A stretch of 64,000 nt of DNA from Chimonanthus salicifolius (lineage: Eukaryota > Streptophyta > Magnoliopsida > Laurales > Calycanthaceae), in assembly GCA_013350335.1 (NCBI GenBank), contig CM023540.1, positions 32,591,175-32,655,174 on the forward strand. The letters are read 5' to 3'. Position numbers and translations under genes: made by a program. Shown here in pieces: positions 10,206 to 12,616 of this stretch. Numbering within the stretch: the stretch's first letter is position 1; each line of letters starts with the position of its first letter. The notes beneath the pieces were generated by a model. That model saw only the letters and a list, made by a program, of their open reading frames with translations, did no database searches and was not told where the DNA came from.

Positions 10206-12616
10206 TTATCCAAATCCAAATCCAGAAAAATCTTCTTGTAAAGATCCTATGTCTTCAAAACAAGTGTCCATCAAAGAATACCATTCAATTTCCTTCTCAT
10301 TCTCACACCTTTCTTCATTTCCACCATTTCCACCATTTCCACCACTGTCACTCTCCTCTTTACTACCTGAAACTCCACTCTCTGTTCTTCTTTCGTCAAT
10401 ACACAAGCACCCATTTTCCTCTCTTTCATTTTCACTGCCCTTGCTAGGACTTGATATTCCACTTTCTAGCCATTCTTCATTCTCTTTTACTGCACTTGTG
10501 TCTAAAATCACTTCACTTTCTTGTTGAAAAGTCGCGGGTGAATTATTTTTTGAATTTATATGTGGGAAACTGCAGGATAGCCAGCATAAAACCTCCACGG
10601 GTGTTTTCTCTTGATCTTCATTTCTATTTGATATAATTGATGGGATCTCAGCAATTGATATCGTGTCTAAAATCACTTCACTTTCTTGTTGAAAAGTCGC
10701 GGGTATTTTCGCTTCATCTTCATTTTTATTTGATACGGTTGATGGGGTCTTGGCAATTGATTTCTGCTTCTCATTCCCCAATTCTTCTTGGTGGTTCTTC
10801 TTCTTCTTCTTCACGGCTGACTTACTTGTTCTCGTACCCTTTCTCTTGCACCCACCAGGTATTTTGTCCATGTCCACGACGACTATCGGTGCTCCGTCGT
10901 TGATTCTTCTAACGCTGTCGATTCTCCTGCTTAGATGTGAGTTCCAGTAGTTCTTAATCTCATTATCGGTTCTTCCCGGTAAACTCCCCGCAATCAAAGA
11001 CCACCTACACAAGCATGATTTTCACTTGAAAAGTTCATATACATGCCCTAATAGACTCAAATCAAAGTAAACATATGCAGACATATAATTGCTTCTTTTT
11101 AATCTTTATTTTCTTATCTGTTGTCTCGTAAGAGACATGTCAACTTTTTTTCATTCAACATTTATATTTTATATTTAACATTTTAAAAATGGAAAGAAAT
11201 GTTAAATGTGTTGGGGGCACTGAACAAGTCGTACTTGGGTGTGAAGAGGGAGATTTATGGACTTATAAATTACTTGACTCACTCCACCTAATAGACTAGT
11301 CTTTTGGGTTGGATACTTAGTCGTATCAAATCTAAGTTCTCAAACTATAGCACGTGGGTTTAAGCATCTCCCAGTCGAATAGAATGATTGGTGATATTCT
11401 ATCTATTAGAGAGAGATTGTTGGGGCAGCGAATGAGTCCTACTTGGTTGTAAAATGAGAGATTTAAAGACTTATAAATGACATGAATCAATCCACCTAAC
11501 AAACTAGTCTTTTGAATTGAATATCGGTCTTGACATAACATTGATGAAAAAAAAAAACGAGTAATAATGGCATTAAGCTACATTGACATAATTAAATATA
11601 TTAAGAATGTTTATGCACTAAAGTCTAAAGCAGTCCACAGACAAATGTGGCTTTTTCTCACCTGTTTCCATACGAAGCATGTAACTTAATAATAACATCC
11701 TCTTCTTCTTTAGAAATATTCCCTCTCTTTAGATCAGCTCTCAAGTAATTAATCCATCTAAGTCTGCAACTCTTCCCACACCTCAACAAGCCTTTATAGT
11801 AAAACACAAAATAAGACAAAAGAATAAATGACAGGAAAGAACAAAAATCAAACTCGCTTCACATAAATAGAAAAAACATATGTGGGTGCTTGAAAGAGAT
11901 AAAAAGGTGTTTTGATACTAAATAGAAAAAACATGTGAGTGTTTGAAAGAGAGAAAAAGATGTTTTTTTATCAAAGTTTATAGAGAGATATCTAAGAATT
12001 TATTAAAGATTTGGTCAGTCCACTTATCACGCTAGTCTTTTGGATTTAGTCCTATCAACGATTTCATTATTTATTCACTCTTTTCTTAATAAGGACCTTT
12101 TTCGATATTTAAGCTCTAAGATTCCTTATGCAACCAACTGAGTTCTATAACGTGGTAAAAAAAGCAAAAACCCAACTCATTTCAACAAAAAAAATTCTAA
12201 ATATTTGATAGATGAACAAATAAATAAATGAAAAAAAGAAGAAGCAAAATCCCAACTCTTTTAAAAATCATATTTTTCTAGTTTCTTTTTTAGCAACCAC
12301 AAAATTTCTGAAATAACCCAACTCACTTAAAAAAAAGAGAAAAAAGAAGAAGAAGATAATTACAAAGATATTTTGGTCAAATGCAAATGCACAGAAGGAT
12401 CTGTTTCGAAATTCTTATTTTTTAAAACAAAAGCACTTATTCTCTCTCTTTTTTTTCCTTTTACATCTTTGATATTTCCCTACCTGCATTCTTGGGTAAT
12501 GATCTCCATGACCCTTCTCCATTTGCTTGAATGTACTTCAGCAAGAGCTCATCCTCTTCTGTTGTCCATCTCCCTTTCTTCAATCCCACTTTTTCACAAC
12601 ATGGCGCTCTTCCCAT
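10206..12616 (-). CDS. MYB12-like: R2R3-MYB transcription factor, flavonol-regulator (subgroup 7) type
   Basis: Exons on the minus strand: 12484-12616, 11662-11791 and 10206-11004 (133, 130 and 799 bp, the classic R2R3-MYB layout), giving 353 aa. It starts MGRAPCCEKVGLKKGRW. R2 has W17, W37 and W57. R3 has I70, W89 and W108, and ends GRTDNEIKNYWNSHLSRR. Residues 141-153 (KRKGTRTSKSAVK) match the subgroup-7 motif known from MYB11, MYB12 and MYB111, which activate early flavonoid genes (CHS, CHI, F3H, FLS) in the nucleus. The bHLH-binding signature of R3 is absent (V77, S84 and S95 replace its L, L and R), as in that subgroup. The C-terminal WLLS tail is missing; the protein ends DFSGFGFG. The C-terminal half carries an internal duplication and a SINE-derived segment (separate entries). 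Which of the subgroup-7 paralogues it matches cannot be settled here. Confidence 0.93.
10498..10762 (-). repeat. Internal tandem duplication in MYB exon 3
   Basis: A unit of about 105 bp occurs twice: 10663-10762, and 10498-10662 where it is interrupted by a 63-bp SINE insert. Each unit begins 'gtgtctaaaatcacttcact' on the plus strand. The encoded protein repeats SIA..PS..SN.NED..K.P and PATFQQESEVILDT. Both copies are in frame. Confidence 0.9.
10541..10603 (-). mobile_element. 63-bp SINE-A 3' tail inserted in frame inside the MYB coding sequence
   Basis: The sister duplicate at 10663-10762 lacks these 63 bases, so they are an insertion. They read 'gaatttatatgtgggaaact', 'gcaggatagccagcataaaa' and 'cctccacgggtg'. 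This matches the 3' end of the SINE-A copy at 58038, which reads 'gaatttacgtgtggaaaact', 'gcaggataccgcatgtaaaa' and 'tctctacgggtg'. The A-tail (plus-strand 'attatttttt') is present, and CGGGTG flanks the insert on both sides (10535-10540 and 10598-10603), like a short target duplication. The insert is 21 codons and encodes about residues 222-242 (including VEVLCWLSCSFPHINSKNN). It is in the same orientation as the gene. Confidence 0.85.
11209..11540 (+). mobile_element. TRIM-like retrotransposon in MYB intron 2
   Basis: Two direct repeats of about 115-123 bp, 11209-11322 and 11418-11540, both start TGTTGGGG and share 'acttataaat.ac.tga.tca' and 'cacctaa.a.actagtcttt'. Between them is an internal part of about 95 bp that begins GTATCAAATCTAAG, in the position of a tRNA primer-binding site. 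No coding capacity. The same family is intact at 58568-58920. No flanking target duplication is evident, so it is old. It lies antisense to the MYB gene. Confidence 0.75.

What the first reader, a model, noticed from the sequence alone, without database searches (positions are those of the whole stretch)
10541..10603. A SINE tail has become protein-coding inside a flavonol-type MYB
The MYB exon 3 duplication gives an internal control: the sister unit lacks exactly these 63 bases. The insert matches the 3' end of the local SINE-A family, carries its A-tail, is flanked by CGGGTG on both sides, and adds 21 codons without breaking the frame. It also creates a WLS-like peptide (VEVLCWLSCSF) near where other subgroup-7 proteins carry a WLLS motif. 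Exonisation within a coding exon, rather than through new splice sites, is uncommon.
Basis: seen in the sequence. Interest (0 to 1): 0.85.

Follow-up and report, generated by a model that had tools for sequence, protein, structure and literature searches.

The report
SINE fragment inside a MYB exon
A 63-base piece of a common plant jumping element sits in frame inside the coding part of a flavonol-type MYB gene, where it looks like a tolerated scar rather than a new working part.

Summary
The 63 nt at 10541-10603 (- strand) interrupt the second copy of a 102-nt tandem unit in exon 3 of an R2R3-MYB gene, add 21 codons, and come from the 3' end of a tRNA-type SINE: 48 bits, E 2.8e-14 against a profile of 7 local copies; 55 of 57 nt match a consensus of 18 genomic copies.
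Three points change. (1) CACCCG at the 5' side is SINE consensus, so the flanking repeat may be a target-site duplication, a microhomology, or both. (2) The WLS peptide is one letter from what the SINE consensus encodes (WVS) and lies about 120 residues before the end; a C-terminal tail like that of relatives is still in the DNA (10103-10228), out of frame in both gene copies on this chromosome. (3) A second copy 609 kb away carries the same insert; between copies the insert differs at 5 of 63 sites, other coding sequence at 12 of 967, introns at 50 of 1341.
So the insert changes like unconstrained DNA. Best reading: a 5'-truncated SINE insertion tolerated in a loose C-terminus; a new member of a known kind, without evidence of co-option. 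Expression is untested.

The parts
10541..10603 (-). 63-nt insert, 21 codons, 3' fragment of a tRNA-type SINE (boundaries can slide 6 nt because CACCCG is at both ends)
10498..10662 (-). second tandem unit (102 nt) interrupted by the insert
10663..10764 (-). first tandem unit, uninterrupted: internal empty-site control
12484..12616 (-). MYB exon 1
   Evidence: Pfam PF00249
11662..11791 (-). MYB exon 2
10206..11004 (-). MYB exon 3 as open frame up to the present stop
10226..10230 (-). T-run near which the reading frame departs from that of relatives (same in both C9 copies; the exact place of the shift is inferred)
10103..10228 (-). out-of-frame remnant of a C-terminal tail like that of relatives, 41 codons plus stop, containing WLLS
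9285..9457 (+). nearest local SINE copy, 1.1 kb away
14861..15033 (+). local SINE copy
20540..20707 (-). local SINE copy
44298..44460 (-). local SINE copy
58015..58185 (-). local SINE copy, best local match to the insert by BLAST (83%, E 6e-12)
62663..62836 (-). local SINE copy
4490..4641 (-). local SINE copy

Best explanation
A 5'-truncated copy of a tRNA-type SINE was reverse-transcribed into the second unit of a 102-nt coding tandem repeat in exon 3 of a subgroup-7-like R2R3-MYB. The most likely route is target-primed reverse transcription (inferred): the A-tail primed at a T-rich nick opposite the host's AAAACACCCG, and the truncated 5' end was joined through the CACCCG shared by host and SINE. 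The length (63 nt) and the SINE's own open frame kept the MYB frame, so the insertion was tolerated in the repeat-rich, fast-changing C-terminal region. It is carried by both copies of the gene on this chromosome and drifts like unconstrained DNA. The gene has also lost its conserved C-terminal tail through a separate frameshift shared by both copies. Shown: SINE origin, open frame, both copies, frame departure, divergence pattern. Inferred: TPRT, tolerance. Not shown: transcription and translation.
For: SINE origin: (55 of 57 nt to the consensus; the 18 copies 50-54 of 57; second copy of the insert 53). Family behaviour: of 18 fetched copies, 7 show TSDs of 9-16 nt that I judged convincing by eye (L012 and L013 share one TSD), and 2 of those 7 (L015, 13 nt; L019, 16 nt) are 5'-truncated, so truncated insertions with TSDs occur in this genome. 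Frame: the consensus is open in 2 of 3 frames. Tolerance: the second copy at C9:33210691 carries the insert in frame; divergence 5/63 insert, 12/967 other coding, 50/1341 introns; insert vs other coding p=0.0026, insert vs introns p=0.096; 4 of the 5 changes alter residues. Frame departure.
Against: The insert lacks an unambiguous TSD: only CACCCG is identical, and the 5' copy is SINE sequence; extending it gives AAAACACCCG against AATTCACCCG, two mismatches. The rate test rests on five differences; against the introns singly p is 0.060 and 0.21, and introns may not be neutral. The 18 copies were fetched as best matches to the insert, so their consensus leans towards it. No transcript was found, so the gene could be silent. 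The second copy may be the other haplotype rather than a paralogue. The out-of-frame tail shows 0 of 126 differences between copies, which is odd for a dead tail.
Confidence: 0.75

Rival explanations
1. The SINE piece is filler copied in during repair of a double-strand break by template switching at the 6-nt CACCCG microhomology, without retrotransposition. The same repair may have overwritten the right 42 nt of unit 2 from unit 1.
For: CACCCG is shared by host and SINE. The right 42 nt of the two units are identical while the left 60 nt differ at 14 sites; chance of all 14 falling left is 0.0003, and the identical tract begins at the insert junction. Only 6 nt of clear duplication, against 9-16 nt in 7 of 18 family members.
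Against: The fragment ends at the element's A-rich 3' end, as expected of reverse transcription from the tail, and truncated copies with TSDs are seen in the family (L015, L019). The homogenised tract can equally be later gene conversion stopped by the insert.
Confidence: 0.3
2. The insert has been co-opted: it supplies a useful peptide (WLS-like) that stands in for the lost WLLS tail.
For: The gene has no in-frame WLLS tail, the insert is open in both copies, and CWLS is the same in both.
Against: The SINE consensus already reads CWVS in this frame. WLS lies about 120 residues before the end, whereas relatives that have the motif carry it in the last few residues. The insert is more diverged between the two copies than the other coding sequence, with 4 of 5 changes altering residues.
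Confidence: 0.06
3. The gene is a dying pseudogene, and the SINE piece and the frameshift are both marks of decay.
For: Frame departure in both copies; the SG7 motif departs from the published pattern at two positions, and at a third in the second copy; amino-acid changes outnumber silent ones in the C-terminal part of exon 3.
Against: Exons 1 and 2 are identical between copies (0 of 263) while introns differ at 50 of 1341; coding sequence without insert is less diverged than introns, p=0.0002. No stop in the R2R3 region; splice sites intact. The indels between the copies in exon 3 (9, 3 and 12 nt) are multiples of three.
Confidence: 0.2
4. The similarity to the SINE is chance, or the insert is an assembly error.
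For: None found.
Against: 44.0 bits against at most 6.5 in controls; present in a second, diverged copy.
Confidence: 0.01

Closest known systems
Au SINE in wheat coding sequences (Plant Cell Rep 37:193, PMC5787218; passages seen)
   Same: A plant SINE contributes coding sequence to protein genes; the paper states that SINE exonization had not been reported before in plants, and gives genes whose coding sequence includes part of Au SINE.
   Different: Of 40 cases in that paper 35 are in introns and 4 in an exon region, and the coding examples shown are splice variants or starts inside the SINE; here a 5'-truncated piece lies inside one coding exon and adds codons directly.
tRNA-type, A-tailed plant SINEs with TSDs (class recalled, no family name found)
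   Same: Elements of about 165 nt with box A- and B-like stretches, A-rich 3' end and TSDs of 9-16 nt in 7 of 18 copies.
   Different: The insert is only the last 57-63 nt, without promoter boxes, and with an ambiguous 6-nt TSD.
Subgroup-7 flavonol R2R3-MYB activators (MYB11/12/111, PqMYBF1; PMC10096829, passages seen)
   Same: Two MYB repeats, SG7-like motif KRKGTRTSKSAVK, relatives named MYB111-like, MYB12-like and myb-related P-like among the hits.
   Different: The SG7 motif departs at two positions, and the WLLS-bearing tail is out of frame in both C9 copies, unlike the C3 paralogue.

Membership tests
Subgroup-7 R2R3-MYB | Two MYB DNA-binding repeats | tested here: met
   PF00249, 2 stretches, E 1.1e-33
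Subgroup-7 R2R3-MYB | SG7 motif [K/R][R/x][R/K]xGRT[S/x][R/G]xx[M/x]K (pattern from PMC10096829) | tested here: inconclusive
   KRKGTRTSKSAVK differs at two fixed positions (G to T; R/G to K), read by eye; Persea P0001 has KRKGGRTSRSAMK
Subgroup-7 R2R3-MYB | C-terminal SG7-2 motif [W/x][L/x]LS | tested here: not met
   WLLS is encoded downstream of the present stop in another frame. The insert's CWLS fits the loose pattern but not the position.
Subgroup-7 R2R3-MYB | Activates flavonol synthesis genes | not testable with these tools
   needs a promoter assay
tRNA-type SINE family (source of the insert) | Dispersed multicopy, shared consensus | tested here: met
   40 of 914 candidates scored; the 38 outside the two gene copies are 88-93% identical; 18 aligned
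tRNA-type SINE family (source of the insert) | Pol III box A and box B | tested here: inconclusive
   TAGCTCAGCTGGTT and GGTTCGAGCCCC seen in aligned copies, compared with recalled tRNA boxes; no transcription test. An Rfam scan of 9200-10700, which holds one copy, gave no tRNA match.
tRNA-type SINE family (source of the insert) | Target-site duplications | tested here: met
   9-16 nt for 7 of 18 copies, judged by eye from a longest-common-word search; the other 11 gave words of 6-9 nt that I did not accept
TPRT insertion (this insert) | Its own TSD and A-tail | tested here: inconclusive
   CACCCG both sides but also SINE sequence; tail CAAAAAATAATT

The most novel reading that the evidence does not exclude
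Two accidents in one C-terminus, a SINE piece adding 21 codons and a frameshift removing the conserved tail, turned one of two flavonol-MYB paralogues into a protein with an unchanged DNA-binding domain but an altered activation region. It could now compete with the C3 paralogue as a brake on flavonol synthesis.
Probability: 0.1. Interest if true: 0.6.

Novelty: new member of a known kind. Interest (0 to 1): 0.36.

Why it matters
It is a clean case of transposon sequence entering a coding exon without new splice sites, with an internal empty-site control, a second copy of the gene for a rate comparison and an open outgroup paralogue. It shows how such a piece can be kept by tolerance alone: the source element happens to be open in that frame and the host region is loosely constrained. 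It also corrects the tempting reading that the new peptide replaces a conserved motif.

Tried and rejected
Looked for closer orthologues: search with residues 100-353 (353 proteins at E <= 0.001, 120 listed, best Persea 37%) and with a 152-aa piece spanning the insert (31 candidates, none at E <= 0.001). Splice-out of the insert: the only GTAAGT in the coding sequence (10825) with the insert's CTGCAG (ends 10570) would remove 256 nt, not a multiple of three, and the second copy has CTGCGG; other donors were not scored, so splicing is not excluded. RNA families in 9200-10700: one snoR28 match far below its cut-off, taken as chance. The tandem-unit peptide IPATFQQESEVILDT scored at best 31 against the 120 relatives (P0046), without a control. 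Paper searches on plant SINEs and exonization: searches gave lists; searches gave none; only passages of PMC5787218 and PMC10096829 were read. Tested how far the second copy runs: 32.40 Mb matches 33.0076 Mb at 96-98%; 32.80 Mb has no match in 33.405-33.412 Mb. Paralogue or second haplotype stays open.

Full report
What is there. The gene lies on the - strand and reads as three exons (12484-12616, 11662-11791, 10206-11004) with GT/AG junctions, 353 aa. Pfam finds two MYB repeats. The best relatives are magnoliid and other flavonol-type MYBs, Persea first at 37% over residues 100-353. A PPR gene in the window is 77% identical to Persea and 73% to Magnolia, so the plant is probably a magnoliid of the Laurales (inference). 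The assembly has 852.6 Mb in 591 contigs; eleven contigs (C1-C11) of 51-98 Mb appear among the fetched loci. This fits Calycanthaceae such as wintersweet, whose genome paper PMC7419205 holds the term '11 pseudochromosomes' (search listing), but the species was not identified.

The insert. Exon 3 holds a 102-nt tandem unit; the second copy is interrupted by 63 nt that the first lacks. The frame is kept. A profile built from 7 SINE copies of the window, without the insert, hits 10617-10542 at 48.2 bits, E 2.8e-14. The 63 nt alone score 44.0 bits; controls reach at most 6.5. In the whole genome, 40 of 914 candidates were scored with a 72-nt query: two are the gene copies, 35 match within the insert letters, 3 overrun them by 1-3 letters. 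An alignment of 18 of these copies shows an element of about 165 nt with tRNA-like boxes, ending CACCCGTGGAGGTTTTATGCTGGGTATCCTGCAGTTTCCCACATGTAAATTC and an A-tail. The insert matches 55 of the first 57 consensus letters, its second copy 53, the 18 copies 50-54. These 18 were fetched because they match the insert best, so this consensus leans towards it; the 7-copy window profile does not have that bias.

How it got there. But CACCCG is also SINE consensus, so the 5' copy can be SINE, host or both. In the family, 7 of 18 copies show duplications of 9-16 nt that I judged convincing, and two of these are 5'-truncated. I therefore favour target-primed insertion of a truncated copy, joined at its 5' end through microhomology. 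Break repair with a SINE-templated filler is the main rival. It gains some weight because the right 42 nt of the two tandem units are identical while the left 60 nt differ at 14 sites (chance 0.0003). Gene conversion after the insertion would explain that as well.

Not a replacement motif. In 35 of the 120 listed relatives an exact WLLS lies within the last 45 residues, and a looser pattern does in 44 of 120. Here a tail FLDLDLDKDFDLDWNGMGEKLMMEDGEEIWSWLLSADANDL is encoded at 10103-10228, after the present stop and in another frame. Its homology was tested: 19.2 bits against a profile of 35 relatives, with 10.5 the best of 1000 shuffles; alignment scores of 68 to the C3 paralogue and 77 to Persea, reached by 0 of 500 shuffles each. 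In those alignments WSWLL pairs with the relatives' inner WSWLW rather than with their terminal AAWLLS; that SADANDL answers to Persea's terminal SAETNDL is my reading by eye, and would need a deletion between the two. The C3 paralogue reads its repeat as LDLDLD and stays open to AAWLLSSDAVDSNGS, while both C9 copies have the same run of five T and read the repeat as GFGF followed by a stop, so a random assembly error is unlikely. The SINE consensus reads TPVEVLCWVSCSFPHVNSKKK in the gene's frame; the letter that turns WVS into WLS is also in 2 of the 18 copies.

Rate of change. A second copy of the gene lies 609 kb away on the same contig. The surrounding segment aligns collinearly over about 73 kb at 94-98%, with one stretch of about 1.1 kb at 86% and short unaligned gaps (pieces under 250 nt left out), and a stretch at 32.40 Mb also has its partner. 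It may be a segmental duplication or a retained second haplotype. Between the copies, exons 1 and 2 differ at 0 of 263 sites, exon 3 down to 10229 without insert at 12 of 704, the out-of-frame tail (which includes the last 23 nt of the present frame) at 0 of 126, introns at 50 of 1341 (21 of 684 and 29 of 657), and the insert at 5 of 63; gapped columns were left out. Insert against other coding sequence p=0.0026, against the rest of exon 3 p=0.009, against both introns p=0.096, singly 0.060 and 0.21 (no correction for several tests). Four of the five insert changes alter residues, and none makes a stop. Changes elsewhere in the C-terminal part of exon 3 are also mostly amino-acid-changing, so that part is loosely held. 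The insert thus behaves like unconstrained DNA inside a gene whose DNA-binding part is the same in both copies. The zero differences in the out-of-frame tail speak against my reading that this tail is dead, and remain unexplained: locally low divergence, or the tail is somehow still used.

Relatives. By eye, none of the 13 relatives aligned shows the tandem unit or the insert, nor does the C3 paralogue. The insert peptide scores no better against 120 relatives than shuffles do. No close orthologue was found, so the age cannot be set beyond 'older than the split of the two copies'.

Verdict. The finding is real and well described. Its mechanism is a known kind, transposon sequence in a coding exon. 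Wheat Au SINE is the nearest plant precedent found (PMC5787218, passages), although there most cases lie in introns. The functional hint is not supported.

Noticed in passing
10103-10230: Both C9 copies of the MYB share a C-terminal frame departure; the out-of-frame tail shows 0 of 126 differences between copies, while introns differ at 50 of 1341. Unexplained.
   Followed up: partly
window as C9:32591175-32655174, partner about 33.19-33.26 Mb: Most of the window has a collinear second copy 608-609 kb away on the same contig at mostly 94-98% identity, and 32.40 Mb also has a partner; retained haplotype or large segmental duplication.
   Followed up: partly
L012 and L013 (C8:24658064 and C8:24060237): The same SINE insertion with the same 14-nt TSD occurs twice on C8, about 598 kb apart on opposite strands, again like a retained second haplotype or duplication.
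   Followed up: no
10498-10539 and 10663-10704: The right 42 nt of the tandem units are identical while the left 60 nt differ at 14 sites (p 0.0003), which suggests gene conversion or repair-copying next to the insert.
   Followed up: partly
L041 (C3:62068803-62069359): Paralogue of the MYB, open through three exons, with a long LDLDLD run before its C-terminal motif; no tandem unit or insert seen.
   Followed up: yes
7825-8497: Large foldback element: arms 7825-8076/8246-8497 (77%) and 8068-8159/8164-8255 (89%), about 1.7 kb from the 3' end of the MYB open frame.
   Followed up: no
55220-56695: Single-exon PPR gene; its best hits are named At1g09190-like, 77% to Persea; protein P0126 (source lgn, 329 aa) is 99% identical over 67% of it.
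   Followed up: no
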